A stretch of 64,000 bases of DNA, from the NCBI RefSeq assembly GCF_900005615.1, contig NZ_LN832559.1:2386837-2450836 (forward strand), written 5' to 3'. The position numbers and the translations under genes are program-made. Source of the DNA: Paracoccus aminovorans. Its GTDB lineage: Bacteria; Pseudomonadota; Alphaproteobacteria; Rhodobacterales; Rhodobacteraceae. How positions within the stretch are numbered: the stretch's first letter is position 1; every line of letters starts with the position of its first letter. The notes under the pieces are model-generated. The model was not told the DNA's origin and ran no database searches. It saw only the letters and a program-made list of their open reading frames with translations. Shown here piece after piece: positions 46,073-62,154 of the stretch.

Positions 46073-46488
46073 AATTTTTAATCGACGAATGTCTGAGCCC
46101 AGAGCTTGCAAAGATCGCAATCGACAAAGACCACGGCGAAACCAGCCATATCGTTTGGCTGGGTCTCGCCGGACATAAAGACTGGGAGCTGACGCCGATC
46201 ATCCTGGACGGCGACTGGACATTCGTCACCAAGAACTCGGTCGACTTCCGGGGGCCAAAGGACAAGCCCGGAACGAAGGGGCAGTATGCCGATGTGGCGA
46301 TCCATGCCGGCCTGATCTGCCTCAACGGCCCGCCCGGCATGGATCTGGATATGCAGATCGAACTCTTCGAGCAGGCTCTGCTCGAACTCGACGCTGACCC
46401 TGATCTGGTGAACCAGGTGCTCGAAATCACGCTCGACGATGATGATTTACGCGTGCTCCGCTACGCGCTTCCTGCCGAAGAAAGCTGA
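46069..46488 (+). CDS. DUF5615-type PIN-like toxin
   Basis: The 139-residue protein starts MKFLIDECLSPELAKIAIDK, with the first acidic active-site residues of the PIN fold, and has WTFVTKNSVDFRGP, the family's second acidic region. It probably cleaves RNA. Translation is coupled to the DUF433 gene. The middle differs from the shortest family members by an insert around GTKGQYADVAI. Confidence 0.82.
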   Translation: MKFLIDECLSPELAKIAIDKDHGETSHIVWLGLAGHKDWELTPIILDGDWTFVTKNSVDFRGPKDKPGTKGQYADVAIHAGLICLNGPPGMDLDMQIELFEQALLELDADPDLVNQVLEITLDDDDLRVLRYALPAEES

Positions 46489-46497
46489 GGAGGCAGC

Positions 46498-47331: not shown

Positions 47332-47403
47332 TCGCGCCCCTACACAACGCAGGCAAGTAAAGTTCGAAACAGGAAGCAAAATAACGAGGAACTGAGGGCG
47401 ACC

Positions 47404-48345
47404 ATGGCCGAAGCGAACAAACTACCCCGACGGCTCTACAAATATCGGGGTTTCAGCCACCGCCTGCTGGATATGCTGGTCGCGGACGAGCTTTACTATT
47501 CAGACCCCGGTGACTTCAACGACCCCCTCGACTGCCGCCCAACTCTCGATGCTAACCTCCCCAACGATCAGCTTGAACAGGTTCTAAGCCGTCTGCGCGA
47601 GCAGCGTATCCTCGCCGAGATGCAGGCTGCGGCAAAATCCCTCAAATATCGTGGCCCCAAAACCATCGATCATATCGCGCGGCATAGCCAGAAGGATGCC
47701 GCTCGGCTGCTTGACGAAATCCGCTATCACGCAACCGATCCCAGCTACGAGATCGCTGATCCCCTGCAATCGCTGTTGCGTCAGTATCTCGAAGACGAAT
47801 TGCTTCGCCGCTACGACCGTGGCATCGTTTCGTTCGGAGTCCGCGCCACATGCCCGTTGATGTGGAGCCACTATGGCGATCAGCATAACGGGATTTGTGC
47901 TGGCTACTCTGTTCCGGCCGAAGCGGAAGCCGACCTCAACAAGATCCGCTATGGAGGCAGTCGCAAGGTGATGGCCAGCGATGTGGCCATGATGGAGAAC
48001 GACAGCGCCGCACGACAGCGTGTCGACGAAGCCGTCCTGCTCCGCAAGGCTGCGAGTTGGCGTTATGAGAGGGAATGGCGTCTGATCGGCAAACGCGGCG
48101 CACAGGATTCGCCGCTGGAACTCGAAGAAGTCGTCTTCGGCATTCGCTGCAAATCCTCCGTCAAATTTACAGTCGTTCAGGCCCTGGCAAACCGGGGCCG
48201 CCCCGTGCGCTTTTTCGAGATGCGTGAAGTACCCGGCACGTTTCACCTCCGAAAGTACGCGCTCGACACGGATGAACTTGGAGCGTCCCTGCCCCGGCGA
48301 TCGCGGGCAATTTTTGAGGCTTTTGAAAATCTCGACGAAGAATAA
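47404..48345 (+). CDS. DUF2971-domain protein
   Basis: The 313-residue protein shows the ordered DUF2971 landmarks: PRRLYKYRGFS at the start, YYSDPGDFNDPLDCRP, CPLMWSHYGDQHNGICAGYS in the middle and ASWRYEREWRLIGKRG. The function is unknown, but the family is common in defence islands. It lies between Abi-C and TrlF genes on the same strand. Confidence 0.82.
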   Translation: MAEANKLPRRLYKYRGFSHRLLDMLVADELYYSDPGDFNDPLDCRPTLDANLPNDQLEQVLSRLREQRILAEMQAAAKSLKYRGPKTIDHIARHSQKDAARLLDEIRYHATDPSYEIADPLQSLLRQYLEDELLRRYDRGIVSFGVRATCPLMWSHYGDQHNGICAGYSVPAEAEADLNKIRYGGSRKVMASDVAMMENDSAARQRVDEAVLLRKAASWRYEREWRLIGKRGAQDSPLELEEVVFGIRCKSSVKFTVVQALANRGRPVRFFEMREVPGTFHLRKYALDTDELGASLPRRSRAIFEAFENLDEE

Positions 48346-48465
48346 CGTCAAGCTTGATAGAAAGAATTGTTATAAAACAACTTGTGGATGCTAAGCATCT
48401 CATGAATCACATGAATTCGGACAGAGCATAGGCCATCTATTTCTGCCGATACACGCGGAGGGGCA

Positions 48466-51438
48466 ATGATCGGCAGAGGTTCGCAGTGGCGGCGTTGGGA
48501 GCCGCATATCCATGCACCGGGGACAATCCTGAACAATCAGTTCGGTGGTGGCGATCCCTGGGAGGCCTATCTGACATCTCTGGAACGCTGCTCACCCGCA
48601 ATCGGTGCCATAGCTGTTACCGACTACTATGTCACAGACACCTATGAGGAAGTGTTGCGGCGCAAGCAGGCGGGGCGCTTGCCCAACGTCCAGCTCATCT
48701 TTCCAAATGTCGAACTGCGGCTCGACATCGCCGCCAAGACCGGCTTCGTCAACATGCACCTGCTGGTCAGTCCGGAAGATCCCAATCATTTGGCCGAACT
48801 GCATCGCATTCTCCAGCGATTGCAGTTCCAGGCGCATGGGGACACCTACAACTGCACGCGCAACGATCTGATTGCTCTTGGCAAACGCGCCGACACCGCC
48901 ATCATCGACGATGGCGCGGCTCTGCGCCACGGTGCCACGCAGTTCAAGGTCAACTTCGCTCAACTGCGCCAGGTGCTACGAGACAGCGACTGGGCCAAGA
49001 CAAACATTTTGGTCGCGGTGGCCGGCGCAGCGGGAGATGGAACGTCGGGGTTGCGGCAGGCGGCCGAGGCGACGATGCGCCAGGAGATCGAGCGGTTTGC
49101 TCACATCATCTTCTCAAGCAGCCCCGCGCAACGTGAATTCTGGTTCGGCAAAAGGGGCGTCAACGTTGAGAAACTGCGCGAGGACTATGATGGGTGTAAG
49201 CCATGTCTGCATGGCAGCGACGCACATGACCAGAAAACCGTCGGGCAGCCAGTGGAGGAGCGCTTTTCATGGATCAAGGGTGGTCTCGAGTTCGATGCCC
49301 TGCGCCAAGCCTGCATTGATCCGGAAGGACGCGCTTACGTCGGAACCGAACCGCCGCGAACCGCTATGCCCTCGCAAGTCATTTCGCACATCTCCATTGC
49401 TGATGCAGATTGGGCCGCGACTCCCGAAATCCCTCTCAACCCCGGCCTGGTAGCGATCATCGGGGCTCGTGGTTCCGGAAAAACGGCACTCGCCGATATG
49501 ATAGCTGCTGGATGCGATGCCATCACGCCATCTGGATGGAGCGCCAGCGAGAATGCTAGTCCCTCCTTCCTTGTCCGCGCCCGCGAGCTGGTCGGCAACG
49601 CGACGGCCACGTTGACCTGGGGCGGTGGCGCCACCACAACGCGCGCGCTCGATGGTCGGGACGCCAACAATCATCTGTCCTTTCCGCGCGCCCGATATTT
49701 GTCGCAGCAATTCGTGGAAGAGCTCTGCTCTTCCGGCGGCTTCTCGGACGGTCTCATCGCCGAGATCGAACGGGTGATTTTCGAATCCCACTCCGACGAT
49801 CAGCGGGACGGTGCGATCGACTTCGCCGAGTTGCGCAGCCACAGGACAAGTCGCTTCCAGCAAGCCCGTGAGCGAGAAGCCGAAGCTATTGCCGAGATTT
49901 CCGATCGCATCGCCACAGAACTGGAAAAGGAAAGTTCTGTCCCGACTCTGAATGCGCAGGTGACCCAGAAAGCCGGCCTGATCAAAAGCTACAATGAAGA
50001 TCTCGCCAAACTCGTCGTCAAGGGCACCGAAGCTCAGGCACAACGGCACACACAACTCAGTCAGGCCGTGCAGGCGGTACGCGGCAAGATCCAGGGATTC
50101 GGCAATCAGCGGCGGACCTTCCTCGCCCTGCAGGATGAGGTGAAAAGCACCCGAGCTACCAAGGCGCCCGAATTGTTGCGGCAGGCCAGGGAACGCCATC
50201 AGCAGGGCCATATGAACGATCAACAGTGGGACGAATTCCTGCTGGTGTACAAAGGCGATGTCGACAAGAGTCTGGCGGGCTACGTCACATGGGCCGATCA
50301 GCAGATTGCTGCTCTCAATGGTCCTCCCCTGCCATCGGGCATTCCCACGCCCCCCATAGCCGACAGCGCCGATCTTTCCACGCTCACCCTCAACGTCCTT
50401 CAAGCCGAGATGACGCGGCTCGAAGCCTTGGTCAGCGCGGACAAGCTGGTCCGGGACCAGTATTCAGCGCTTTCACTCCGCATTGGGCAGGAAAACACCG
50501 CCCTTCAGAACCTGCAAGCCCGTCTCACCGATGCCCAGGGCGCCGCGACCCGCAAGAAAGACCTGCAAACCGAACGTGATGCGGCCTATGGCCGTGTGTT
50601 TGAAGCTATCATCAATGAACAGACGGCGCTCGCCAGTCTCTACGCACCGCTCATGAGCCGTCTGGCAGCCTCATCGGGAACTTTGCAAAAACTCGGCTTT
50701 TCCGTGCGCCGTATCGTTGATGTCGAAGCCTGGGGAACGATTGCGGAAGAGAAACTTCTCGACCGCAGAAAGGCCGGTCCCTTCAATGGCCGTGGATCGC
50801 TGATCCAATTGGCCAATAGTGCGCTCAAGCCGGCCTGGGAGAATGGGACGGCAGCGGACGTGCAAGCCGCAATGGCCGCGTTCATCTCAACGTACCTGCG
50901 AGACTTGATCGGACACGCGCCCATTGCTCAAGCGCAACAGGCTGAGTTTCGGGCCTGGCTCAAAGAGTTTGCCCACTGGCTGTTTGCGACTGACCATATC
51001 TCCGTACGCTATGAGATTGTCTATGACGGCATCGATATCCGTAAACTCTCGCCTGGGACGAGAGGGATTGTGCTTTTGCTTCTGTATCTCGCACTGGACG
51101 ACGCAGACGACCGACCACTCATCATCGACCAGCCAGAGGAAAATCTCGATCCTAAGTCCGTCTTCGATGAACTCGTCTCGCTGTTCATCGCGGCCAAATC
51201 CAAACGGCAGGTCATCATGGTCACCCACAACGCGAACCTTGTGATCAACACCGACGCGGATCAGATCATTGTCGCAGAGGTTGGCCCGCATCAGATCGGC
51301 GGCTTGCCGCCCATCACTTACAAGGCAGGCGGCCTGGAAAACGCAGATATCCGCAAAGCCGTGTGCGATATTCTTGAAGGCGGTGAAGAAGCATTTCGAG
51401 AGCGTGCTCGCCGACTTCGTGTCAGGCTGGAGCGATGA
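48466..51438 (+). CDS. TrlF-type PHP-ATPase, candidate defence effector
   Basis: The 990-residue protein joins two domains. Residues 1-300 form a PHP-type phosphoesterase with HIHAPG near residue 14, an IAVTDYYV strand and HGSDAHD near 249, which are metal ligands. From about 325 an SMC/ABC-like ATPase follows: Walker A GARGSGKTALAD near 332-343, a coiled-coil middle (about 440-720), signature-like LSPGTRGIVLLLLYLAL, Walker B PLIIDQPEENLD near 883 and switch VTHNANLV. This matches the TrlF family of PHP-ATPases seen in defence islands. Nuclease activity triggered by ATPase sensing is an inference. Confidence 0.8.
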   Translation: MIGRGSQWRRWEPHIHAPGTILNNQFGGGDPWEAYLTSLERCSPAIGAIAVTDYYVTDTYEEVLRRKQAGRLPNVQLIFPNVELRLDIAAKTGFVNMHLLVSPEDPNHLAELHRILQRLQFQAHGDTYNCTRNDLIALGKRADTAIIDDGAALRHGATQFKVNFAQLRQVLRDSDWAKTNILVAVAGAAGDGTSGLRQAAEATMRQEIERFAHIIFSSSPAQREFWFGKRGVNVEKLREDYDGCKPCLHGSDAHDQKTVGQPVEERFSWIKGGLEFDALRQACIDPEGRAYVGTEPPRTAMPSQVISHISIADADWAATPEIPLNPGLVAIIGARGSGKTALADMIAAGCDAITPSGWSASENASPSFLVRARELVGNATATLTWGGGATTTRALDGRDANNHLSFPRARYLSQQFVEELCSSGGFSDGLIAEIERVIFESHSDDQRDGAIDFAELRSHRTSRFQQAREREAEAIAEISDRIATELEKESSVPTLNAQVTQKAGLIKSYNEDLAKLVVKGTEAQAQRHTQLSQAVQAVRGKIQGFGNQRRTFLALQDEVKSTRATKAPELLRQARERHQQGHMNDQQWDEFLLVYKGDVDKSLAGYVTWADQQIAALNGPPLPSGIPTPPIADSADLSTLTLNVLQAEMTRLEALVSADKLVRDQYSALSLRIGQENTALQNLQARLTDAQGAATRKKDLQTERDAAYGRVFEAIINEQTALASLYAPLMSRLAASSGTLQKLGFSVRRIVDVEAWGTIAEEKLLDRRKAGPFNGRGSLIQLANSALKPAWENGTAADVQAAMAAFISTYLRDLIGHAPIAQAQQAEFRAWLKEFAHWLFATDHISVRYEIVYDGIDIRKLSPGTRGIVLLLLYLALDDADDRPLIIDQPEENLDPKSVFDELVSLFIAAKSKRQVIMVTHNANLVINTDADQIIVAEVGPHQIGGLPPITYKAGGLENADIRKAVCDILEGGEEAFRERARRLRVRLER

Positions 51439-51590
51439 CAATTTTGCGGGCGGCCTAATGGCCGCCCATTCCCAGAGCAGCAGGCGCACGGCTTCCTGGG
51501 GCCTGATATCGTTCTGATCGCTATCGACAAAAGCAAGCGTCCCGCACCATGACTTACATCGCTATGATATGGAGCCAACTCTCCACGCTT

Positions 51591-52085
51591 TCAGATTGGC
51601 AAATCTTCCCAGCGGATACGGAGATAGCGGCCTGATCGTTTCGGCAACTGCTTTCGCTCAATCATTCGGCCCGAGACCTGAAATTCCGCATTAATCTTGA
51701 CCACGAGCAGCTTGTTGAAATGGCGTGACGTATCAACCATGACGACATCCTTGCTCTTGAATGGCGTAATGGTCTTGATCTCGACATGGTCATTGCCGAG
51801 CCGTCCGTCAGAACCCTGCGCATAGGTGCGGTTCAGCTTGATCCCATAGGTGATAGCCCCGAAGAGCTCACCGATATCGCCGTAGACGGAAAGATGCAGC
51901 CCCGTTTCCAGATGGTAGCTCTCGGCGAGCGAGGTCAGATCCTCAAAATAGGGTATCATCGAACGGATGGCGTTCGGATATTTGGCACCCCATTCCTTGT
52001 GCCGCAGTTGCTCATCAATCTCTGACCAGGTTACCCATTCCCCGTCATCATAAAACGCGCGATCAGACCAGTTGATCTCTTCCAT
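51591..52085 (-). CDS. PD-(D/E)XK-like protein of unknown function
   Basis: The 164-residue protein has YGDIGELFGAITYGIKLNRT, then GSDGRLGNDHVEIKTITPF. This is the alpha-helix Glu followed by D...ExK of a PD-(D/E)XK nuclease core. KLLVVKINAEF supplies the next strand. It lacks any DNA-recognition domain, so it may be a restriction-enzyme-like partner or effector. It converges on the trlF gene with a 152-bp gap. Confidence 0.6.
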   Translation of the reverse strand: MEEINWSDRAFYDDGEWVTWSEIDEQLRHKEWGAKYPNAIRSMIPYFEDLTSLAESYHLETGLHLSVYGDIGELFGAITYGIKLNRTYAQGSDGRLGNDHVEIKTITPFKSKDVVMVDTSRHFNKLLVVKINAEFQVSGRMIERKQLPKRSGRYLRIRWEDLPI

Positions 52086-52224
52086 TTACATTATCCAGAA
52101 ATGCTGACGTGAATATCGCCCAACAACCATCATTCAAACTACTACCTCTTTCTTAACAACCAACGGAATACCCTTCGCCTGACACAAGGCCCGGACGGGC
52201 GGAAGCAATATTTATGGAGATGTT

Positions 52225-52254
52225 GGGGGAAAGCCTTCCCATAAGCGCTAACTT
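52225..52254 (+). repeat. 30-bp terminal inverted repeat, left copy
   Basis: It begins GGGGGAAAGC and ends GCGCTAACTT, and matches the right copy at 56302-56331 in inverted orientation with 28 of 30 positions identical. A GGGG start and this length resemble the ends of Tn3-family elements. No 5-bp target duplication is seen (ATGTT left, TGGTC right). Confidence 0.7.
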
Positions 52255-52286
52255 TGGGGTGGACGGCAGGAATCGGTCTGTGATTC

Positions 52287-53603
52287 ATGAGGAGGATGGA
52301 CTCCGATACCCATCCCCATTTCGACATCGCGTGGCGTGAGCTGCTGTCCCGTTTGCCGGACAATCTGGATCTTGACAAAAGCGCGCGTGAGCATGGCGCG
52401 GTAAAACGTAGAAGGGTAGTGCGGGATGGCGCGACCATGTTGCGGTTGGCGCTAGCCTATGGACCAGGCAGGATGAGCCTACGGTCTGCTGCTGCGTGGG
52501 CGGCTGGATGCGATATCGCACATTTGTCCGATGTCGCGCTGTTGAAGCGCCTCAAAGGGGCAGAAGACTGGTTGAGCTATATCGCCGCATCCTTGCTTAA
52601 CGACGATATCCGCAGCCGGAATGGCGAGCGACGGCTGCGAATAGTAGATGGCAGCGTGATCCGCTCGTCGGGCAAGGGCGGCACGGACTGGCGCCTGCAC
52701 GCAACATATGATCCGGCACGAGGGAGGTTCAGCCAGCTTGAGATCAGCGATACGCATGGCGGGGAGAGCTTATCGCGCCATGAATTCGAGAAGGGCGATC
52801 TCGTGCTTGGAGACCGAGGATATGCTCGGACACCCGGACTGCTGCATGTGCGCGAAATGGGAGCGGACTTCATTATGCGGATCGGATGGTCGACGATCCG
52901 GTTGCTGACACCGAACGGCGCACGCCTGGACTGGAACGCGGTCTACGCTGGTATGCAACCCGGCGACATCGCCGAACACGAGGTATTGGTTGATCATTCC
53001 GGCCGCAAACGCGAGTTGAGTGGCGCCTCGACATTCCGCGCCCGTTTAATCATTCGGCGCAAGGACGTGGCTTCGTCAGAACGGGCGCGCAAGGCGATAT
53101 TGTTTGACCACCGAAGGAAACAGCGGGTGGCCGCACACCCCAACCCTTTGACAGTCGCTTCGGCGGATTTCCTACTATTACTGACTTCGGCTTCCGTAGA
53201 GGAAATTTCTGCGGACAATGCGATCGCGACCTATCGCCTACGGTGGCAGATCGAACTGGCGTTCAAACGGCTCAAGAGCGGACTCGGGATCGATGCGCTT
53301 CCGGCGCGTGACAGCCAACTCGCTCGCTCATGGCTCGCGGCATACCTAATTGTTGGATTGCTGATCGACGAGGCTGTCGCCGACAGCCTCGCTTTTCCCC
53401 CCGCGTCGTCGGCGCAAACAGGCGCACACCTGTCGCTGTGGCGAATGCAGAAATTTATAAGGAACGCGCTCTTGGTCGCGATCTTTGGAGAGCCTCGGCT
53501 CTCCCGGGTCGGTCAAAGCCTCGCAGGCGCCGCCAGAACGCTCTTCGAGCCACCCCGACGAAGGTTATCGCAGTTCAGTCAGCTGCGCGCTCTGCCCATT
53601 TGA
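52287..53603 (+). CDS. IS4-family transposase
   Basis: The 438-residue transposase has DDE-type residues in LRIVDGSVIRSSGKGGTDWR, GDLVLGDRGYARTPG and RLRWQIELAFKRLKSGLG (the YREK-like motif). The frame is intact. It lies 32 bp inside the left 30-bp repeat; no second terminal repeat specific to the IS could be located with confidence. It may have brought, or inserted into, the repeat-bounded unit. Confidence 0.9.
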   Translation: MRRMDSDTHPHFDIAWRELLSRLPDNLDLDKSAREHGAVKRRRVVRDGATMLRLALAYGPGRMSLRSAAAWAAGCDIAHLSDVALLKRLKGAEDWLSYIAASLLNDDIRSRNGERRLRIVDGSVIRSSGKGGTDWRLHATYDPARGRFSQLEISDTHGGESLSRHEFEKGDLVLGDRGYARTPGLLHVREMGADFIMRIGWSTIRLLTPNGARLDWNAVYAGMQPGDIAEHEVLVDHSGRKRELSGASTFRARLIIRRKDVASSERARKAILFDHRRKQRVAAHPNPLTVASADFLLLLTSASVEEISADNAIATYRLRWQIELAFKRLKSGLGIDALPARDSQLARSWLAAYLIVGLLIDEAVADSLAFPPASSAQTGAHLSLWRMQKFIRNALLVAIFGEPRLSRVGQSLAGAARTLFEPPRRRLSQFSQLRALPI

Positions 53604-53778
53604 GCGGCGTGCGACAGGGCGTTGCGATAACTGACATCGATAGTCAGGGGTCAGGCAGGTTCCAAGCGGCGGACCAAGACTAGTGACCCTTTGTTGCTGC
53701 CCCAAAAACGACCGAGATACCGGAAAGCCAACCTCTTCCCGAAACTCGTCTGACCACGATTTGGGAAGATCGAATCAC

Positions 53779-54672
53779 TTACGCAGCAGTGGTCATCTGA
53801 GCTCGCGCCTGTCGAACATCTCGGGCGGGTGGGAGGCCAAACATGCGGCCATATTCACGCGTGAACTGCGGAACGCTCTCGTATCCCACGCCGTAGGCGG
53901 CATCGCTGATCGCCTCGCCCAGTGAGAGCATTCGGCGCCGCGCCTCGATGAGCCGAAGCTGCTTTTGAAACTGTAGCGGCGACAAAGACGTGATGCTGCG
54001 GAAATGGACGTGGAAGGCGGACAGGCTCATCCCGGCCACCTCGGCCAGCGCTTCGACCTTCACCAGCTCGGCATAATGCGCGCGGAGCATGGCGACGGCG
54101 CGCGCGATCCGCTGGGCGTGGCTGTCGGTAACGCCAAGCGCCCGGATCGCGCCGCCATGCCGGCCGCTGAGCAGCCAGTAATGTAGCTCGCGCTTGAGCT
54201 GCGGTCCCAACACCGCCAGCGTTGCGGGGCGGTCGAGCAGGCGTAGCAGTCGCAAGGCCGCGTCCGCGACTTCCGTCTCGGTCGGATCGACCCTGACCGG
54301 GCGATCTGCCTCGAACGGCGCCGCGCCGATCTCGTCTACCAAGCCCGCGATAATGGCAGGATCGAGTTCGAGAACGAGGGAATAATAAGGCAAGACGCGG
54401 GTCGCCGTCGTGATCTGGCTGACGGTCGGCACGTCGGTGGTGACAAGCAGGGAATCGCCCGCGCCGAAGTCGAAGGTGGCGCTGCCCATCGTCACACGTT
54501 TGCTACCTTGCAGTACCAGCGCCACCAAAGGCTTCGACACCGCATATTGCAGCATCGTCGGCGCCGTCTCACGCAGGATCACCAGCCCTTCCACCGGTGT
54601 CGTCGCGACGCCGGCATGGTCGGCATGGGCGTCGGCAAAGCGCCGTGCATAGTCGAGGAGCGGACCTGTCAT
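53779..54672 (-). CDS. AraC-family regulator (AraC_N type)
   Basis: The 297-residue protein has the AraC-type N-terminal sensor (LVALVLQGSKRVTMGSATFD, SLLVTTDVPTVSQITTATRV) and a C-terminal DNA-binding domain (EALAEVAGMSLSAFHVHFRS, SPLQFQKQLRLIEARRRM, GYESVPQFTREYGRMFG). It is divergent from an SDR gene with a 131-bp spacer; regulators of this type commonly activate adjacent SDR or oxidoreductase genes. Confidence 0.92.
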   Translation of the reverse strand: MTGPLLDYARRFADAHADHAGVATTPVEGLVILRETAPTMLQYAVSKPLVALVLQGSKRVTMGSATFDFGAGDSLLVTTDVPTVSQITTATRVLPYYSLVLELDPAIIAGLVDEIGAAPFEADRPVRVDPTETEVADAALRLLRLLDRPATLAVLGPQLKRELHYWLLSGRHGGAIRALGVTDSHAQRIARAVAMLRAHYAELVKVEALAEVAGMSLSAFHVHFRSITSLSPLQFQKQLRLIEARRRMLSLGEAISDAAYGVGYESVPQFTREYGRMFGLPPARDVRQARAQMTTAA

Positions 54673-54803
54673 GGTCGACTAAATACGGCACGCGACCGGA
54701 TGCGGCAACCGATCTGGACGATCAGGCAATTTTTCCGGCCGATCGCGCAACAGCGGCGTGGCGGTGGGATGCATAAGGCTGGCAACACCAACCGGAGGCT
54801 TGC

Positions 54804-55559
54804 ATGACCACCATTTCCCTCGTTACCGGCGGCAGCCGTGGCCTCGGCCGCAATACCGCCATCAGCATTGCTCGCCATGGCGGCGACGTGATCCTCACCT
54901 ATAATAGCGGCAAGGACAACGCCGATGCGGTCGTTGCCGAGATCGAGGCGCTGGGCCGCAAGGCGGTCGCGTTGCAGCTCGACACCGGCAGCGTCTCGAC
55001 CTTCCCGTCCTTCATTGAGAAGCTGCGCGGGGCGCTGACCACCACCTTCGGGCGCGAGCGCGTCGACCACCTCGTCAACAACGCCGGCCACGGCGAGATG
55101 GCGGACTTCGCCGCCACCACGGAGGAGCAGTTCGACAAGCTGTTCTCGGTCCACGTCAAGGGCGTATTCTTTCTGACGCAGGCGCTGCTTCCCGTGCTGG
55201 CCGATGGCGGGCGGATCGTGAACTTCTCGTCCGGCCTGACCCGTGTGTCGTTCCCCGGCTTCTCGGCCTACTCGGCCGCCAAGGGGGCGATCGAGGTGTT
55301 GACCGTCTACATGGCAAAGGAGTTGGGCGCACGCGGCATCACCGCCAACACGGTCGCCCCCGGCGCGATCGAGACCGACTTCCTGGGCGGCGCGGTGCGG
55401 GACATTCCCGACTACAACACCGCCTTCGCCGGCATGACCGCGCTCGGCCGCGTCGGCCTGCCCGACGATGTCGGGCCGATGGTTGCGAGCCTGCTCGGCC
55501 CCGACAACCGCTGGGTCAACGGCCAGCGCATCGAGGTGTCGGGCGGCCAGACGATCTGA
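54804..55559 (+). CDS. Short-chain dehydrogenase/reductase
   Basis: The 251-residue classical SDR has the cofactor motif TGGSRGLGRNTAI, the NNAGHGE strand, the catalytic Ser in NFSSG and the YxxxK in YSAAKGAIEVL. The C-terminal part (GRVGLPDDVGPMVASLLGPD) is typical of the 3-oxoacyl-ACP reductase-like group. It is divergent from the AraC regulator and 54 bp before a tautomerase gene. The substrate is unknown. Confidence 0.93.
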   Translation: MTTISLVTGGSRGLGRNTAISIARHGGDVILTYNSGKDNADAVVAEIEALGRKAVALQLDTGSVSTFPSFIEKLRGALTTTFGRERVDHLVNNAGHGEMADFAATTEEQFDKLFSVHVKGVFFLTQALLPVLADGGRIVNFSSGLTRVSFPGFSAYSAAKGAIEVLTVYMAKELGARGITANTVAPGAIETDFLGGAVRDIPDYNTAFAGMTALGRVGLPDDVGPMVASLLGPDNRWVNGQRIEVSGGQTI

Positions 55560-55613
55560 GGCCCACCAGCGGATGCCGCTCGGCGGCATCCGCTCCATAC
55601 CGGAGGCGCTACC

Positions 55614-56042
55614 ATGCCGAAGCTCATCATCCACTCGCCTGTCGGCACCTTCAATGCGGCCGATCGCCAGCGTGTCGCTGGCAACCTCGCAACCCTGGGC
55701 CTGGACTGCGAGGCGCTTCAGCCCTCGCCGATGGTGCGTAGCACCGTGTGGACGTACTTCGCCGATTACGCGGCGGATGCCGTGTTCATGGGCGACGAAC
55801 CCGCGCGCCTGCCCGTCGTGACACTCCAGATATATGTGCTGGCCGGTGGACTGGATGCTGCCGGCAAGCGCCGGCTCATTGATGGCGCAACCGCCATCCT
55901 TGATCGGCGGCCGGACGGCACAGCGGTCGCCCCGGTGTACGTCGTCATTCACGAGGTTGCGGAGCAAAATTGGGGCATCTTCGGAAAACAAGCCGACCTT
56001 ACCGCGCTGCGGGCGAGCCCACCGGATGCGCCGGCGATCTGA
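55614..56042 (+). CDS. Tautomerase-family protein
   Basis: The 142-residue protein has Pro at position 2 (MPKLIIHSPVGTF), the catalytic residue of tautomerases after removal of Met, and a second half with LQIYVLAGGLDAAGKRRLID and VYVVIHEVAEQNWGIFGKQ. It is longer than 4-oxalocrotonate tautomerase (62 residues), like the cis-3-chloroacrylic acid dehalogenase/MIF-like members. It follows the SDR gene and is probably cotranscribed. Confidence 0.85.
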   Translation: MPKLIIHSPVGTFNAADRQRVAGNLATLGLDCEALQPSPMVRSTVWTYFADYAADAVFMGDEPARLPVVTLQIYVLAGGLDAAGKRRLIDGATAILDRRPDGTAVAPVYVVIHEVAEQNWGIFGKQADLTALRASPPDAPAI

Positions 56043-56390
56043 CGTTCAAGCGTTCCCTCAAAAGAAGGTTGATCGAGAACGACGGCGTGAGCGTACCCAC
56101 GCTGCTACCGCCCCATACGCATCAGTTTTCCAAAACCTGTTCCCGATAGCCTTTTCCCGAAACCGGCTGATGGAGATGGAGAAACGGGACTACCGAGTGC
56201 GTTCCGAGCAACCGATTTCGGGATGACAGGGCGGGCGCCGGAGCGTCTTGGCTGAGAGGCAGCTGTGACGGCGGTCTGCGCCGCCGCCGTGCCTGCGCTT
56301 TAAGTTAGCGCTTATGGGAAAGCCTTCCCCCTGGTCGGCACTGGCGTTGCCGACGCACCCCCATCAGCGGGGAGACCCCGCAACGCCCCC
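56043..56390. other. Non-coding stretch holding the right repeat
   Basis: No gene is visible in this stretch of about 350 bp. It contains the right 30-bp inverted repeat (56302-56331). Beyond it lies a GC-rich hairpin-prone segment (CAGCGGGGAGACCCCG). Confidence 0.5.
56302..56331 (-). repeat. 30-bp terminal inverted repeat, right copy
   Basis: Read on the minus strand it begins GGGGGAAGGC and ends GCGCTAACTT, mirroring the left copy at 52225-52254 with two mismatches. The enclosed 4,107-bp unit includes the IS4 transposase, AraC, SDR and tautomerase genes. Confidence 0.7.
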
Positions 56391-56476
56391 TTGAGAGTGA
56401 GAGTGCGGACGGGTTTTCCGTGACGGGTTGAGGGCTGGAAGAGAGGCTTCCGGCGCCCGTCGCGGAGATCATCCCG
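56391..56476 (+). ncRNA. Structured leader motif, copy A (before ardC)
   Basis: The stretch begins TTGAGAGTGAGAG, then has an outer stem GACGGG/CCCGTC (56422-56427 with 56456-56461) enclosing an inner stem GCTGGAA/TTCCGGC (56434-56440 with 56448-56454) and a loop GAGAGGC. It ends immediately before the ardC ATG. Two further copies precede the parB-like gene and the gene at 61606, and base changes in the stems are compensated. It may be a 5' UTR regulatory RNA or a protein-binding site. Confidence 0.6.
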
Positions 56477-57439
56477 ATGGCCAGACAGGATCGCAGCCCC
56501 GCTGACGGTGGCGCGCGCAGCAACCTTTACGACGACATCACCAACAAGATCATCGCCGAGCTGGAGCAAGGCCGGCTCCCCTGGGTCCAGCCATGGGGCG
56601 CGTCGCCGGATACCGCCCCGCTGGGCCTGCCGAAAAATGTTTCAACCGGCCGGTCATATTCAGGCATCAATATTCTCATTCTCTGGGGTGCTGTCATCCA
56701 GCACGGTTTCCCCGGTCAGGCGTGGCTGACTTTCCGACAGGCGCTTTCGCTGGGCGGCAATGTCAGGAAGGGCGAGCGCGGCACCACCGTCGTTTATGCC
56801 GACCGTTTTACCCCAGAGGACGAAAAACGCCGTGCCCGCGAGACGGGTGAGGATGCGCATGCCATTCCGTTTCTGAAGCGGTTCACGGTCTTTAACGCCG
56901 CGCAATGCGATGGCCTGCCCGATGAGATCACGGCAGTCGCGCCGCCACCGCCGCCGGGGCTGATCGAACCTCGGGTCGAGGCGCTGATCCGGGCCACCGG
57001 CATCGACTTCCGTATCGGTGGCAATCGCGCCTTCTATATGCCGTCGCTCGACTATGTGCAGGTGCCGCCTCCGCAAGCCTATTTCGAGCCGATCAACTGG
57101 CACAGGACGGCCCTGCACGAGCTGGGCCACGCCAGCGGCCATCATAGCCGTCTCAACCGCGATCTGACCGGCTCGTTCGGTTCGAAGAAATACGCCTTCG
57201 AGGAAATGCTTGCCGAACAGACCGCAGCTTTCAGCTGTGCCGCGCTCGGGATCGTGCCGACGGTGCGCCATGCCGATTACATCGGGTCGTGGCTGGAGGT
57301 CATGCGCGAGGATTCCCGCGCCATTGTCCGCGCAGCCTCGCAGGCCAGCAAGGCGGCGGACTGGCTGCTGTCGCATCTGCCTGCCGAAGACACCGGGGAG
57401 CCGGATGCCAGCGTAACCGACCGGAGGGCTGCGGCATGA
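56477..57439 (+). CDS. ardC: ArdC-family antirestriction protein
   Basis: The 320-residue protein has the N-terminal ssDNA-binding DUF1738 domain (YDDITNKIIAELEQGRLPWV, GLPKNVSTGRSYSGINILIL, LGGNVRKGERGTTVVYADRF). A C-terminal metallopeptidase-like domain follows, with HELGHASGHHSRLNRD (HExxH type) and FEEMLAEQTAAF. ArdC protects incoming conjugative DNA from restriction. The stop overlaps the next start (ATGA). Confidence 0.92.
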   Translation: MARQDRSPADGGARSNLYDDITNKIIAELEQGRLPWVQPWGASPDTAPLGLPKNVSTGRSYSGINILILWGAVIQHGFPGQAWLTFRQALSLGGNVRKGERGTTVVYADRFTPEDEKRRARETGEDAHAIPFLKRFTVFNAAQCDGLPDEITAVAPPPPPGLIEPRVEALIRATGIDFRIGGNRAFYMPSLDYVQVPPPQAYFEPINWHRTALHELGHASGHHSRLNRDLTGSFGSKKYAFEEMLAEQTAAFSCAALGIVPTVRHADYIGSWLEVMREDSRAIVRAASQASKAADWLLSHLPAEDTGEPDASVTDRRAAA

Positions 57440-57831
57440 TGCTCCTGACCGGCACACAGCGCGACCACCTGCTGGCGAATGGTCGCCAGCGCGATCAGGA
57501 TCACATCCCGGTCGTGAAGTTCTTCAACCCCCTCGGCGAGGGCGTCTGGCTCGCCACCGAACTGGGTGAGGATGGCGACATCATGTTTGGCCTGGCCGAT
57601 CTCGGCTATCCAGAACTCGGGTCGTGGAGCCTTGGCGAGATGCAGTCAGTCCGGCTGCCCTTCGGCATGGGCATCGAGCGCGATCTGCTGTTCACCGGGG
57701 ATTTCCCGATCTCGGTCTGGGCCGAGGCCGCCCGTGAGACCGACAGCATCCGCGCCGCAGAGCGTCTGCTCTACCGCGTCGGCGCGAGCTTTTCTCGTAC
57801 ATCCGCCGATACAGAAAACCGGAGTGCCTGA
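57436..57831 (+). CDS. DUF2958-domain protein
   Basis: The 131-residue protein reads MMLLTGTQRDHLLANGRQRD, VVKFFNPLGEGVWLATEL and DLGYPELGSWSLGEM, the DUF2958 signature. Family members sit next to ardC and other conjugative-element genes, and their function is unknown. The start overlaps the ardC stop by 4 bp. Confidence 0.88.
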   Translation: MMLLTGTQRDHLLANGRQRDQDHIPVVKFFNPLGEGVWLATELGEDGDIMFGLADLGYPELGSWSLGEMQSVRLPFGMGIERDLLFTGDFPISVWAEAARETDSIRAAERLLYRVGASFSRTSADTENRSA

Positions 57832-57869
57832 TTTCCGGGTTTCAGGTTCTGCGGCTGGCGTCGCTCTCT

Positions 57870-57955
57870 TCAGAGGAAGAGGGCGGCGCTTCGCTTCGTG
57901 ACGGGCTGATAGCCGGAGAGAGAGGCTCACCGGCGTCCGTCATGGAGTAACTGAC
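57870..57955 (+). ncRNA. Structured leader motif, copy B (before parB-like gene)
   Basis: The outer stem is GACGGG/TCCGTC (57900-57905 with 57936-57941, one G-U pair). The inner stem is GCCGG/CCGGC (57912-57916 with 57930-57934), and the loop holds AGAGAGAGGCTCA. It then reads CATGGAGTAA and reaches the ATG 14 nt later. Same layout as copies A and C, with changed paired bases. Confidence 0.6.
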
Positions 57956-60094
57956 ATGGCCACTGCCGTTCAGAAGATCACCCTGTCGTCTTCGCGCGAC
58001 ATTCCCTTCAACAAGCTGGTGCTCAGCCAGTCCAACGTCCGGCGCGTCAAGGCCGGGATCTCGGTCGAGGAACTGGCCGAGTCCATCGCCCGTCGCGGCC
58101 TGATCCAGTCCCTGCATGTCCGCCCGGTAGTGGATGCCGAGGGCAAGGAAACCGGCATGTTCGAGGTGCCCGCCGGCGGTCGCCGCTTCCGGGCGCTGGA
58201 ACTGCTGGTCAAGCAGAAGCGCCTCGCTAAGGTCGCGCCGGTCCCCTGCGTCATGTCGGAGGCCAGTGCCGATGTGCTGATCGACGAGGTATCGCTCGCC
58301 GAGAACATCGAGCGCGCACCGCTGCATCCGCTCGATCAGTTCCGCGCCTTCCAGGCCATGCGCGAAAAGGGAATGACCGAGGAAGCCATCGCCGCCGCCT
58401 TCTTCGTGGATGCCAAGGTGGTGAAGCAGCGCCTGCGTCTGGTCTCCGTCTCGCCGGCATTGCTCGACGTCTATGCCGAAGACGGCATGACGCTGGAACA
58501 GCTCATGGCCTTCAGCGTCAGTTCTGACCATGCCCGGCAGGAGCAGGTCTGGGAGGCAATCAAGGATGGCTGGCAGAAAGAACCCTACCACATCCGTCGC
58601 CTGCTGACCGAAACCACGGTCCGCGCCGCCGACAAGCGGGCAGTGTTTGTCGGAATTGCCGCCTATGAGGAGGCTGGCGGCTGCGTCTTGCGCGATCTCT
58701 TCCAGCAGGACGATGGCGGCTGGCTGCAAGATCCGGTGTTGCTCGACCGGCTGGTGGGCGAAAAGCTGAAGGCCGAGGCCGAAGCCATCGCCGCAGAGGG
58801 CTGGAAGTGGATCGAGGTCGCCATCACCTTTCCCTACGGTCACGATCATGGCCTTCGTCAGATTGTCGGCACTACGGTCGATCTGAGCGAAGAGGAACGC
58901 GCCACCCGCGAGGCATTGCGCGACGAATATGACCGGCTTGAAGCAGAATATGGAGAGGCTGACGAACTGCCTGACGAGATCGACGCCCGCCTCGGTGAGA
59001 TCGAACAGGCACTGGAAACCTTCGAGCGCCGTCCGATGACCTTCGACCCCGATCAAATCGGCATGGCGGGTGTCTTCATCAGCATCGACGCCGACGGCGC
59101 ATTGCTGGTTGAGCGCGGCTATGTTCGCGCCGAGGATGAAACGCCTGCGGAACCGGAGGCGGAGATCGTTGACCCGGAAACCGGCGAGGTGATCCAGCGG
59201 GCAGAACCGGAGGCAAGCCGCATGCGTGCGGTTATCACGCTGGGCGGCCAGCCGGTCGAAATGGAGGAGGAAGACGAGGCCGACACCATCAAGCCGCTGC
59301 CCGATCGTCTGGTCAGCGAGCTGACCGCACACCGCACGCTGGCGCTGCGGGATGCGGTGGCGGTGAACCCGCATGTCGCCATGACCGCATTGCTGCACCG
59401 GCTGGTCATGGATTGCTTCATGCCGCATTCCAGCAAAGGATGCCTCGAAGCACAGGTTCGTGAGGTCCATCTGCCCGCACAGGCCGAAGATCTGCGTGAT
59501 AGCTTGTCCGCCAAGGCCATTGCAGACCGACACGAACGCTGGGGCGATCATGTCCCGGCAGACGATGCCGCCCTTTGGGACTGGCTGACCGATCTGGACG
59601 ATGGTTCGCGCATGGATCTGCTCGCCCATTGCGTCAGCTTCGGTGTCAACGCGCTCTATGAAAAGCCCAACCCCTATAGCGGCACGGGCGTCAGTCAGCA
59701 CGGGCTGGACATCCGCCTCTCGCAGGCTGACCGGCTGGCCCGTTCGACCGGCCTCGACATGGTGGCCGTGGGCTGGCGACCGACCGTTGGCAATTATCTC
59801 GGCCGCGTGACCAAGCCGCGTATCCTTGAAGCCGTGCGCGAAGGGGCCGGAGACCGGGCTGCCGATCTGATCGGGCACCTCAAGAAAGGCGACATGGCTA
59901 AGGAAGCCGAACGCCTGCTGGCCGAGACCGGCTGGCTGCCTGAGCCGCTGCGCATGGTGGACGAAGGCATCGAAGTCGAGCCGGCATCGGGCGCTGCGGC
60001 TGAAGCCGACGATCTGCCCGATTTCCTCTCCGGCGATGGCGAGGACGATCCGGCCGACGACGAGGATGAACAGCATATGGTCGCTGCTGAATAG
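57956..60094 (+). CDS. ParB/RepB/Spo0J-like protein, extended form
   Basis: The 712-residue protein has an N-terminal ParB domain: NVRRVKAGISVEELAESIAR, box I PAGGRRFRALELL, box II SLAENIERAPLHPLDQFRAF. A KorB-like helix-turn-helix follows (EEAIAAAFFVDAKVVKQRLR). The remaining about 500 residues are far longer than in chromosomal ParB and include acidic stretches near residues 315-440 and at the C-terminus. Long ParB-like proteins like this are typical of plasmids and integrative elements, where they act in stability or transfer regulation. No parA is adjacent. Confidence 0.88.
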   Translation: MATAVQKITLSSSRDIPFNKLVLSQSNVRRVKAGISVEELAESIARRGLIQSLHVRPVVDAEGKETGMFEVPAGGRRFRALELLVKQKRLAKVAPVPCVMSEASADVLIDEVSLAENIERAPLHPLDQFRAFQAMREKGMTEEAIAAAFFVDAKVVKQRLRLVSVSPALLDVYAEDGMTLEQLMAFSVSSDHARQEQVWEAIKDGWQKEPYHIRRLLTETTVRAADKRAVFVGIAAYEEAGGCVLRDLFQQDDGGWLQDPVLLDRLVGEKLKAEAEAIAAEGWKWIEVAITFPYGHDHGLRQIVGTTVDLSEEERATREALRDEYDRLEAEYGEADELPDEIDARLGEIEQALETFERRPMTFDPDQIGMAGVFISIDADGALLVERGYVRAEDETPAEPEAEIVDPETGEVIQRAEPEASRMRAVITLGGQPVEMEEEDEADTIKPLPDRLVSELTAHRTLALRDAVAVNPHVAMTALLHRLVMDCFMPHSSKGCLEAQVREVHLPAQAEDLRDSLSAKAIADRHERWGDHVPADDAALWDWLTDLDDGSRMDLLAHCVSFGVNALYEKPNPYSGTGVSQHGLDIRLSQADRLARSTGLDMVAVGWRPTVGNYLGRVTKPRILEAVREGAGDRAADLIGHLKKGDMAKEAERLLAETGWLPEPLRMVDEGIEVEPASGAAAEADDLPDFLSGDGEDDPADDEDEQHMVAAE

Positions 60095-60101
60095 CACTCA
60101 T

Positions 60102-60175
60102 GCGGGGCGGCTTCGGTCGCCCCGCCCTCTTTCCCCTTCCACCGCATAGCCCGGCACTCCGCCGGGCCATTTTTG
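60102..60175 (+). terminator. Two tandem terminator hairpins after the parB-like gene
   Basis: The first stem is GCGGGGCG/CGCCCCGC (60102-60109 with 60118-60125), followed by a pyrimidine-rich tail. The second is GCCCGGC/GCCGGGC (60149-60155 with 60161-60167) with a CATTTTTG tail, a good intrinsic terminator. Together they isolate the parB-like gene from the next operon. Confidence 0.75.
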
Positions 60176-60192
60176 TTTAAGGAGACAAAATC

Positions 60193-60531
60193 ATGCCGCA
60201 CAACGCCAAGGCTCCAAACGACCAGGGCAGCCCGAAGTCGGTTCATGTCGCCATCTACGATCATCCGCACGGCACGGATGTCCGTGTTTTTCTCGCCAGG
60301 GATCGAGCTTTGAACTGGCGTACAGACATTGCCAGGGAATGGTGGAGCAATGCCTATGACGACGATCCCCCGCCGGACGAGGAGATCGGGGAGAAGTATT
60401 TCGACCGAATGCTGGATCGCGGCGAGGAGTTTTTCTCGATACAGCTCTGTGACGTAGAAGTCGGCGATCACGTTGCTACCGATCCGACCGTTCTCGCTCC
60501 GCGCAGCGCCAGCGGAGGTGCATCATGCTGA
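60193..60531 (+). CDS. Conserved unknown protein of the mobile element
   Basis: This 112-residue acidic protein has KSVHVAIYDHPHGTDVRVFL, EWWSNAYDDDPPPDEEIGEK and EEFFSIQLCDVEV. I do not recognise a domain. AAGGAG lies 6 bp before the ATG. Its 3' end overlaps the next start by 7 bp, so the two are coupled. Confidence 0.7.
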   Translation: MPHNAKAPNDQGSPKSVHVAIYDHPHGTDVRVFLARDRALNWRTDIAREWWSNAYDDDPPPDEEIGEKYFDRMLDRGEEFFSIQLCDVEVGDHVATDPTVLAPRSASGGASC

Positions 60532-60821
60532 CCGTCGATGAGATCTTTGCCCAAGATCGGGAAAACCGTCCGATGGAGCGCACGCTGCCCTGGGAGGAAA
60601 CCCGCGACGGCATCACTGTCGTCGTGGAACCCAAACCCCATTGGGCCGAAGACATGCGCGTGTTCCGCCTCGATGCACGCGAGCATTGCCGCTACGCAGA
60701 ATGGACTGCCCATGGCGGCCGCGGGCGCTTCTATGGTCACATCGACACTTCGGGCGATGATCTGATGATGAAGGCGCGCGCGATGATCGCCCGAGAAATT
60801 GCCGATGGGCTTTGGAGCTGA
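60525..60821 (+). CDS. Conserved unknown protein of the mobile element
   Basis: The 98-residue protein reads MLTVDEIFAQDRENRPMERT, then HWAEDMRVFRLDAREHCRYA and GRGRFYGHIDTSGDDLMMKA. No domain is recognised. It shares a transcript with the preceding gene through the 7-bp overlap. Confidence 0.7.
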   Translation: MLTVDEIFAQDRENRPMERTLPWEETRDGITVVVEPKPHWAEDMRVFRLDAREHCRYAEWTAHGGRGRFYGHIDTSGDDLMMKARAMIAREIADGLWS

Positions 60822-61243
60822 GGGCTCGATCGGGGATGTCGCGCTCGGGCCGTGAGGATGGGAGGTCTACACCGGACGGGTCCAATCCGGCTGCACCATG
60901 CCATCTGCCGTCCCATTCAGGACAAGCGGCAGCCATCTCTGGCCTGAAGGGAACACGATCCTGATGCCAGCATGGTGGCAAGGCTGGCGCGGCAGAGCAT
61001 CTGCAACGGGTATCCGGCATCCTGTCAGAGGCAAAGCACCACCCCCGCTTCCATTCGCAAACCTTGGTCCGATCCGTCTCTTTGACAATCAACCCGTGAA
61101 GGGTCGGCTTACGCGAGCGTGCCGCCCTCGGGGATTCGGAAAAAGTCCGAACGCCCTCGGGTGATTGCAGATCCGGTCAGACACTTCGGGCGCCTGTCGC
61201 GCGGGGGATGGTCCCCCGCCTCCAAAGACAGGAGCCGGAACCC
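60822..61243 (+). other. Non-coding stretch with two strong hairpins
   Basis: No gene is visible in these 422 bp. TTCGGA/TCCGAA with loop AAAAG lies at 61135-61151, flanked by repeated CCCTCGGG. A perfect GCGGGGGA/TCCCCCGC stem with a 3-nt loop lies at 61201-61219. Both are close to the start of the small gene at 61244 and could form a leader RNA. Confidence 0.5.
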
Positions 61244-61408
61244 ATGTCCTATGCAGATGCCACCGCCTTCGCCGCCAGCCTTGCCGCCACGCTGATGGTT
61301 TCGATCGTTGTGTTCCAGGCCGGAGACGGCACCCACGCCGCTTGCCCCGCCGCCGAGTTCGACGGCGATGACGACATGGTGAAGCTGGAGTTGGACCCGT
61401 GGGAGTAA
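61244..61408 (+). CDS. Small 54-residue membrane-anchored protein
   Basis: ACAGGAG lies a suitable distance before the ATG at 61244. The product has one hydrophobic segment (FAASLAATLMVSIVVFQAG) and a short acidic tail (EFDGDDDMVKLELDPWE). No family is recognised. The good ribosome-binding site and hairpin-rich leader favour a real gene. Confidence 0.55.
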   Translation: MSYADATAFAASLAATLMVSIVVFQAGDGTHAACPAAEFDGDDDMVKLELDPWE

Positions 61409-61518
61409 GGCGCGAAAGCGCCTCATCCCCGACGGCCCGAGCGCGGCAGCCCGCGCTTCGGGCCTTCAGCCTTGCGATGATCCCCATCGCCGGCAGCGGA
61501 ACCGGGAACAAGCCCGGT

Positions 61519-61605
61519 CAGAGAGGAAGAGTGCGGGCCGTTCGGCCGTGACGGGTTGAGGGTCGGAGAGAGAGGCTCACCGGCGCCCGTCATGGAGTAA
61601 TCCCA
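61519..61605 (+). ncRNA. Structured leader motif, copy C
   Basis: A short hairpin GGCC/GGCC comes first, then the outer stem GACGGG/CCCGTC (61550-61555 with 61586-61591) and the inner stem GTCGG/CCGGC (61562-61566 with 61580-61584). The same AGAGAGAGGCTCA loop and CATGGAGTAA exit as copy B follow, then the ATG at 61606. Confidence 0.6.
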
Positions 61606-62154
61606 ATGACCTTTGCCCGTTCCGAAACCTTCCGTTCCATCGGTCATATTCTGGCTGCCGATGTTCTGCCCGCGCTTTATCGGTCGCAAAAGCTGCCGCT
61701 GCGCATCTCGTGCCTCGGCGTGGCCAACTATGACGCCAGTGACGCGGCGAACAGTTTTGACCGCGTGATCCCGCTTGGGGAATGCCCGTCACCGGAAGAG
61801 GCCATCCAGGCCGCAGCCTTGCGCCTGTCGCGCGGTGATATTTGCACGGGGCCGGACAGCTTCCCGTATTTTCAGCCGCGCATCATGCTCATTCAGGACC
61901 GCGATCAGCGCCTGGTCCTCGCCGGCGAAATCCGCGCCGGCATTATCCTCTGGCAACAGCCGGTCGCATGCGATGCCGAGGCACGCAGGATCCTGACCGA
62001 GGCCAGCCGCCTGCGCGGTATGGCATTCCGGGCCTCGGACCCCGGTGATGCGAGACGGCTGCGTTACCGCGCCGCTGCACTGGAGGTCCGGCTGGTCGAT
62101 CCCTTCTGGCGCGAGACCGCAGCCGATCTGCTCCGCCTGCCACAGGCCGCCTGA
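61606..62154 (+). CDS. Conserved unknown protein of the mobile element
   Basis: The 182-residue protein reads SIGHILAADVLPALYRSQKL, SRGDICTGPDSFPYFQPRIM and a helical C-terminal part (EARRILTEASRLRG, ARRLRYRAAALEVRLVDPFW). I do not recognise a domain. It is preceded by leader motif copy C and starts a run of small same-strand genes. Confidence 0.72.
   Translation: MTFARSETFRSIGHILAADVLPALYRSQKLPLRISCLGVANYDASDAANSFDRVIPLGECPSPEEAIQAAALRLSRGDICTGPDSFPYFQPRIMLIQDRDQRLVLAGEIRAGIILWQQPVACDAEARRILTEASRLRGMAFRASDPGDARRLRYRAAALEVRLVDPFWRETAADLLRLPQAA

What the first reader, a model, noticed from the sequence alone, without database searches (positions are those of the whole stretch)
56391..61605. 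Repeated structured leader with compensated stems before three mobile-element genes
About 86-nt leaders before ardC, the parB-like gene and the unknown gene at 61606 share the same order: purine-rich GAGAG box, short variable hairpin, outer stem GACGGG/CCCGTC, inner stem, and a loop with GAGAGGC, ending 0-15 nt before the ATG. The inner stem is GCTGGAA/TTCCGGC, GCCGG/CCGGC and GTCGG/CCGGC, so pairing is kept while bases change. The gene products are unrelated, so a common cis-regulatory RNA or protein-binding site for coordinated expression is likely. I cannot name a known family for it.
Basis: partly seen in the sequence, partly recalled or inferred. Interest (0 to 1): 0.82.

Follow-up and report, generated by a model that had tools for sequence, protein, structure and literature searches.

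The report
Shared RNA switch before anti-restriction genes
Plasmids and integrative elements of alphaproteobacteria carry a repeated, structure-conserved RNA segment directly before the start of several unrelated genes, where it partly hides the ribosome-binding site and probably sets when these genes are translated.

Summary
The three leaders share one RNA fold: a purine box GAGAGNNAGAG, an outer stem P1, a UUG-type internal loop, an inner stem P2 and an AGAGG loop. The own genome holds six strong copies, three in each of two element-like gene sets. Searches gave 267 distinct copies; 262 have an ATG, in 260 of them 7-9 nt after GGAG. P2 shows strong compensatory change, and G-U pairs far outnumber A-C pairs, so the structure is kept in the mRNA strand. 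Downstream genes are mostly a ParB-like protein, ArdC, a DUF932-like protein and an unknown 182-aa protein. Hits with a shown taxonomy are alphaproteobacterial. No Rfam 15 match and no paper was found. Best reading: a new cis-regulatory RNA that holds the Shine-Dalgarno in a tuned, breakable helix, with one common trans factor reading the loop and box. Structure and tie to translation starts are well supported; factor, sign and signal are unknown.

The parts
56393..56403 (+). leader 1 (ardC): purine box GAGAGTGAGAG
   Evidence: conservation over the four main families begins at this box
56418..56465 (+). leader 1: outer stem P1, CCGTGACGGG (56418-56427) with CCCGTCGCGG (56456-56465), the last GG being the start of the Shine-Dalgarno
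56434..56454 (+). leader 1: inner stem P2 GCTGGAAG/CTTCCGGC with loop AGAGG (56442-56446)
56464..56467 (+). Shine-Dalgarno GGAG of ardC; ATG at 56477
56477..57439 (+). ardC: ArdC N-domain plus zincin-like metallopeptidase
   Evidence: PF08401, PF18818
57872..57881 (+). leader 2 (parB-like): purine box AGAGGAAGAG
57896..57945 (+). leader 2: P1, TCGTGACGGG (57896-57905) with TCCGTCATGG (57936-57945)
57912..57934 (+). leader 2: P2 GCCGG-A-GAG/CTC-A-CCGGC with loop AGAGG (57921-57925)
57944..57947 (+). Shine-Dalgarno GGAG of the parB-like gene; ATG at 57956
57956..60094 (+). ParB-like protein, 712 aa (ParB N-terminal domain; HTH_ParB below its cut-off)
61521..61531 (+). leader 3 (unknown gene): purine box GAGAGGAAGAG
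61536..61547 (+). leader 3: small upstream hairpin GGCC-GTTC-GGCC whose 3' strand is also the strand that would pair with the Shine-Dalgarno (mutually exclusive)
   Evidence: only mildly enriched over 240 copies
61546..61595 (+). leader 3: P1, CCGTGACGGG (61546-61555) with CCCGTCATGG (61586-61595)
   Evidence: in the single-sequence fold the CC strand sits in the upstream hairpin instead
61562..61584 (+). leader 3: P2 GTCGG-A-GAG/CTC-A-CCGGC with loop AGAGG (61571-61575)
61594..61597 (+). Shine-Dalgarno GGAG of the unknown gene; ATG at 61606
61606..62154 (+). unknown protein, 182 aa, with many relatives, no Pfam family over cut-off, no fold match

Best explanation
Each leader is a cis-acting RNA at the 5' side of a translation start. 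Shown by comparison: the transcript strand can fold into P1 (10 bp, reaching into the Shine-Dalgarno GGAG), a 5-6 nt one-sided internal loop that mostly begins UUG, and P2 with an AGAGG loop, preceded by a purine box GAGAGNNAGAG. Inferred: in the default fold the first two G of the Shine-Dalgarno are held in a helix and translation is low. The 2-nt hinge between the conserved stem and the Shine-Dalgarno is kept imperfect (one or two G-U pairs), so the helix can be opened. One common trans factor, more likely a protein than an antisense RNA of the element, reads the AGAGG loop and/or the box and sets translation of ArdC, the ParB-like protein, DUF932-like and other proteins together. The functional logic would be that of an RNA regulon for genes used when the element enters or settles in a cell; sign, signal and factor are open.
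For: Position: 262 of 267 distinct copies have an ATG, at 7-9 nt after GGAG in 260 of the 262. In a second, partly overlapping set 65 of 68 matches have an ATG at 7-10 nt. Structure: on 85 distinct rows 97.5% of cells paired, 13 of 18 pairs with changes on both sides, 0 of 500 shuffles reach it, and sliding by 1-3 columns drops pairing to 35-52% (alignment fitted to the model). Anchoring without the model on 240 unique copies: P2 pairs 2, 3, 5, 6 and 7 are 95-99.6% paired against 76-90% shuffled, with swaps such as A-U/G-C and C-G/G-C. RNA strand: 331 G-U against 46 A-C cells in 132 copies under 85% identity; the sense strand is the more stable in 238 of 240. Shine-Dalgarno: the two G unpaired with mean probability 0.05-0.06 in 239 copies; GGAG less free than in 58 control genes, 0.19 against 0.30, p=0.0006. 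Hinge: fully Watson-Crick AC seen 8 times against 46 expected among the 225 copies with A/G then C/T, in the same direction in each of four gene families. Specificity: 6 strong copies in the own genome, the next match at 20.4 bits; leader before 21 of 21 ParB-like genes of at least 49% identity found by protein search and before 1 of 9 below that (next ORF checked). Several unrelated families share it. Three 8-mers complementary to the loop gave 6 hits outside the leaders, each in only one of three elements.
Against: No transcript, translation or binding data. The alternative fold that would free the Shine-Dalgarno is only mildly supported. The third and fourth Shine-Dalgarno bases pair in only 58% and 78% of copies, so hiding is partial; in the single-sequence fold of leader 3 the Shine-Dalgarno is not in P1 at all. 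Control genes in these GC-rich elements also have partly paired Shine-Dalgarno sites. Loop variants do not agree between leaders of one element (p=0.71); whole leaders are slightly more alike within an element for two pairs of families (p=0.022 and 0.028; 28 and 25 pairs) but not for the third (p=0.33; 7 pairs), so co-evolution with an element-coded factor is weak. 9 of 50 ardC/DUF932 leaders have no ParB-like gene in the fetched stretch.
Confidence: 0.62

Rival explanations
1. The hairpin is a constitutive part of the translation start (mRNA stabiliser or ribosome standby site): the purine box and AGAGG loop dock the 30S subunit, which then opens the weak helix. No regulator.
For: The loop AGAGG, which holds GAGG, a core Shine-Dalgarno word, is found in 197 of 240 copies; strict distance to GGAG and ATG; no regulator found.
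Against: The box holds no GAGG in the common ardC form; loop variants such as AGAGU exist (17 of 240); why only a handful of gene families carry it is unexplained.
Confidence: 0.2
2. Translational operator for a protein of the element, best candidate the ParB-like protein, which would control itself and its neighbours.
For: The leader precedes 21 of 21 close ParB-like genes; a ParB-like gene is in the locus for 41 of 50 ardC/DUF932 leaders with at least 3.5 kb downstream.
Against: 9 of 50 without it in the fetched stretch; its recognisable domains are those of DNA-binding ParB/KorB proteins; the model of the long C-terminal part is poor.
Confidence: 0.15
3. Hfq-dependent host small RNA opens or closes the leader, as at rpoS.
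For: Purine box resembles ARN repeats (recalled); Hfq is encoded in the own genome.
Against: No partner RNA known; the host genome was not scanned for one.
Confidence: 0.12
4. Single-stranded DNA promoter (Frpo-like) that acts on the entering T-strand.
For: Anti-defence genes of leading regions can use such promoters (PMC11541004, passages).
Against: With DNA parameters the complementary strand folds worse in 235 of 240 copies and better in 2; the leader is 67% GC and only 4 of 480 strands come within one mismatch of TATAAT; the hairpin abuts the Shine-Dalgarno. The oriT and T-strand of these elements were not determined.
Confidence: 0.03
5. RNA thermometer.
For: Shine-Dalgarno in a helix with G-U pairs.
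Against: Predicted pairing of the two G hardly changes from 20 to 65 C in 80 of the 240 copies; the last G rises from 0.26 to 0.38 unpaired. Conserved loop and box not explained.
Confidence: 0.03

Closest known systems
radC RNA motif (Rfam RF01754)
   Same: Structured RNA of Proteobacteria before genes that handle DNA on mobile elements (gene association recalled; only the table entry seen, PMC2864571, passages)
   Different: 149-position model; no match over its cut-off in 61 genomes; 12 of 61 have sub-cut-off matches, none at a leader place listed and none in the own genome
STAXI motif (Rfam RF01728)
   Same: Repeated structure near single-strand-binding, anti-restriction and integrase genes (PMC2864571, passages)
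   Different: Tandem pseudoknots of Enterobacteriales; here one two-helix element per gene, tied to the translation start; no Rfam hit
RP4 KorA/KorB control of klcA, ssb and kor genes (zygotic induction)
   Same: One regulator set ties an anti-restriction gene and a ParB-type gene together (PMC7314908, passages)
   Different: RP4 uses DNA operators; here the shared site is an RNA structure
Frpo/ssi single-stranded DNA promoters
   Same: Folded site before leading-region genes (PMC11541004, passages)
   Different: Folding belongs to the mRNA strand; no -10 element found
rpoS-type leader (Shine-Dalgarno in a stem, upstream purine element for Hfq; recalled)
   Same: Order of parts
   Different: No small RNA known; short compact fold

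Membership tests
radC RNA motif RF01754 | Score above the Rfam gathering cut-off | tested here: not met
   also absent at E<=5 and E<=10
STAXI RF01728 | Tandem pseudoknots and an Rfam match | tested here: not met
   no match; nested stems
Any Rfam 15 family | Match at gathering score | tested here: not met
   0 in the window, 0 in 15 further loci; at E<=10 only four low-scoring hits for leader 3
CsrA/RsmA-controlled leader | CsrA encoded by the cell | tested here: not met
   no PF02599 match over cut-off in the own genome
Hfq/sRNA-controlled leader | Hfq encoded by the cell | tested here: met
Hfq/sRNA-controlled leader | a pairing RNA | tested here: inconclusive
   no recurrent complement of the loop in three elements; host genome not scanned
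Frpo-type ssDNA promoter | T-strand hairpin with -10/-35 elements | tested here: not met
   (fold of both strands and -10 word; -35 not scanned)
RNA thermometer | Shine-Dalgarno freed by modest warming | tested here: not met
   prediction only, 80 of 240 copies
Cis-regulatory RNA acting on translation | Covarying structure at fixed distance from the Shine-Dalgarno and start codon | tested here: met
Cis-regulatory RNA acting on translation | Change of protein output through the leader | not testable with these tools
   needs reporter fusions

The most novel reading that the evidence does not exclude
A post-transcriptional form of zygotic induction: in a settled host a trans factor keeps the leaders closed, and when the element enters a new cell that lacks the factor, ArdC, the ParB-like, DUF932-like and other establishment proteins are made together in a burst, through one RNA element instead of DNA operators.
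Probability: 0.15. Interest if true: 0.85.

Novelty: new variant of a known kind. Interest (0 to 1): 0.66.

Why it matters
In the papers seen here, control of anti-restriction and establishment genes on plasmids rests on DNA operators (RP4) and single-stranded promoters (F type). A widespread RNA element that marks such genes in alphaproteobacterial integrative elements and plasmids would give a handle on their expression during transfer, a sequence tag to find further establishment genes of unknown function, and a new RNA-recognition system to identify.

Tried and rejected
Rfam at gathering and at permissive thresholds: no family. radC RNA: no. Thermometer and single-stranded promoter: not supported. 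Antisense RNA in the element: none recurrent; the host genome was not scanned. CsrA: no match over cut-off. A universal upstream hairpin as an anti-anti-Shine-Dalgarno: only weak enrichment, so not claimed. Co-evolution of loops within an element: no for loops, slight for whole leaders in two of three tests. De novo clustering of neighbouring ORFs for a shared small regulator: swamped by shadow frames of the GC-rich DNA, no result. Structure of the 182-aa protein (mean pLDDT 67) and PDB search: no match at E<=0.001. ParB-like model: pTM 0.36, not used. Literature searches that listed no paper describing the motif: (listings only); no preprints are held and the 2017 list of 224 candidate RNAs is not held.

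Rows dropped and biases: only the 52 strongest of 77 matches were used (the rest were below 20 bits). Of one match (L069) was left out by oversight and four beyond the stored 150 were added by hand. 292 rows collapsed to 267. 262 of these had a start codon; 253 of the 262 had at least 30 residues in the locus and were sorted into families; 261 had a parsable 5' anchor, giving 240 unique; 234 of the 240 entered the box analysis. The start search took ATG, GTG or TTG 3-19 nt after GGAG. The pattern fixes TGACGGG, GAGAGGC and CGTCNNGGAG, so their conservation at those places, including the loop and the pair that closes it, is by construction; P2 pairs 2-8, the hinge, the anti-Shine-Dalgarno strand and the ATG are not fixed. 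The second set overlaps the first. Shuffle controls do not remove relatedness.

Full report
What is there. The window lies in one contig of a 4.0-Mb genome. Three leaders precede ardC (56477), a ParB-like gene (57956) and an unknown gene (61606). Each reads: GAGAG-type purine box; a G-rich stretch of about 14 nt; YC-GU-GACGGG; UUG-type loop (CUG in leader 2); P2 with loop AGAGG; YCCGUC-RY-GGAG; 8-9 nt; AUG. Folding gave -42.3, -39.4 and -33.9 kcal/mol, z -3.4, -2.7 and -1.5; the single-sequence signal is thus moderate for leader 3, whose own best fold uses the competing upstream hairpin, and comparison carries the case.

More copies. The own genome has six strong copies, three in this gene set and three in a second one at C1:33128-40252; the next match has 20.4 bits. 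By DNA similarity 22 of 101 genomes, the own included, have copies. With the covariance model R1, 26 of 385 genomes of the class have copies; with R2, 25 of 299 genomes of a phylum sample, all of the same class, though the list does not show how many other classes were sampled. PLSDB has 53 matching records, all with genus names that I know as alphaproteobacterial; 24 are typed conjugative, 28 non-mobilizable and 1 mobilizable.

Tie to translation starts. 262 of 267 distinct copies have an ATG; the distance from GGAG is 7, 8 or 9 nt in 260. In a second, partly overlapping set 65 of 68 matches have an ATG at 7-10 nt: 30, 25 and 9 at 7, 8 and 9, and 1 at 10. Two of the three others are cut by the locus end and one has no GGAG.

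Genes. Of 253 copies with at least 30 residues of the next frame: ParB-like 100, ArdC 74, DUF932-like 44, the unknown 182-aa family 26, a fifth family 3, two short frames that begin like ArdC, and four singletons including one AlpA-type protein. In a repABC plasmid (L222) leaders stand before the ParB-like gene, DUF932 and a further hypothetical gene. The DUF932 label rests on a sub-threshold Pfam match and on the record's own annotation. Starting from the protein instead of the RNA, the leader stands before 22 of 30 ParB-like genes: 21 of 21 of at least 49% identity and 1 of 9 more distant ones; 30 of 32 matches had a locus, and the next frame was checked to be ParB-like in all 22.

Structure. 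Two analyses agree. The alignment fitted to R1 (85 distinct rows) has 97.5% of cells paired, 13 of 18 pairs changed on both sides, and 0 of 500 shuffles as good. Anchoring without the model, at the loop and at GTGAC/GGAG, on 240 unique copies gives P2 pairs at 78-99.6% against 51-95% in shuffles, the low value being the fourth pair, which is a mismatch in part of the copies. P1's central pairs hardly vary and so say little; in RNAalifold on the first 19 copies no pair had changes on both sides, which I put down to the sequence alignment misplacing P2. The extension into the Shine-Dalgarno pairs in 94% and 98% of copies at the two G, 58% at A and 78% at the last G. Because GGAG itself does not vary there, this extension rests on conservation of the pyrimidines and on energy, not on covariation.

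Which strand and which molecule. Among 132 copies under 85% identity there are 331 G-U and 46 A-C cells. G-U on this strand is A-C on the other, so pairing is kept on the mRNA strand. The sense strand is the more stable in 238 of 240 copies with RNA parameters and in 235 of 240 with DNA parameters.

Tuning. The 2-nt hinge before GGAG pairs with GU. GC (129), AT (68) and GT (20) each leave at least one G-U pair. AC, which would pair fully, occurs 8 times against 46 expected from the single-base frequencies among these 225 of 240 copies, and 7 against 25 among 121 of the 132 less-redundant copies. Each of four gene families leans the same way. I read this as selection for a helix that can be opened; shared ancestry may contribute.

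Boundary. Upstream of the purine box no position is conserved over the four main families (234 of 240 copies), so the element seems to start there. In ardC and DUF932 leaders a palindrome of the form GCGGGG-AGA-CCCCGC often lies just upstream, most often 11-14 nt from the model start (33 of 73 and 15 of 43, against 2 of 100 before parB and 0 of 26 before the unknown gene).

Mechanism. Shown: covarying RNA at the translation start, Shine-Dalgarno partly paired by prediction, shared by unrelated genes of mobile elements. Inferred: translation control by a common factor that reads the AGAGG loop (197 of 240 copies by the anchored reading; 189 by folding; partly fixed by the search pattern) and the box. 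Not shown: the factor, its sign and its signal. Hfq is encoded in this genome; CsrA has no match over cut-off.

Known systems. No Rfam family matches; radC RNA was tested directly. RP4 ties an anti-restriction gene and korB together by DNA operators with zygotic induction (PMC7314908, passages). ArdC-N is proposed to bind single-stranded DNA of the entering element (PMC5512222, passages). A comparison of Mesorhizobium integrative elements has no mention of ardC, ParB or DUF932 in its main text (PMC8627217, term search).

Noticed in passing
56367-56381: Palindrome GCGGGG-AGA-CCCCGC upstream of the ardC leader; similar palindromes recur before many ardC and DUF932-like leaders (33 of 73 and 15 of 43) but hardly before parB-like (2 of 100) and not before the unknown gene (0 of 26). 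It may be an operator or terminator at the head of the operon.
   Followed up: partly
own genome C1:33128-40252: A second gene set with the same three leaders about 2.4 Mb from the window; its ardC leader has an AGUGG loop while its parB-like leader has AGAGG.
   Followed up: partly
61606-62154: 182-aa protein family, 409 relatives at E<=0.001 (120 listed), no Pfam domain over cut-off, no fold match; seen here only through its leader.
   Followed up: partly
61244-61408: 54-aa protein with an equally long hypothetical protein at the matching place of three annotated plasmids (L035, L036, L222), function unknown.
   Followed up: no
44123-55991: Stretch between a phage-type integrase gene (44123) and ardC with an ATPase matching AbiEii/SMC models, a DUF2971 protein, a transposase and an AraC-type regulator: possibly the variable cargo of the element.
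   Followed up: no
L193, L194, L195: Three contigs filed as viral in IMG/VR carry the leaders, in L193 before DUF932-like and ParB-like genes; they may be plasmids, integrative elements or phage-plasmids.
   Followed up: no
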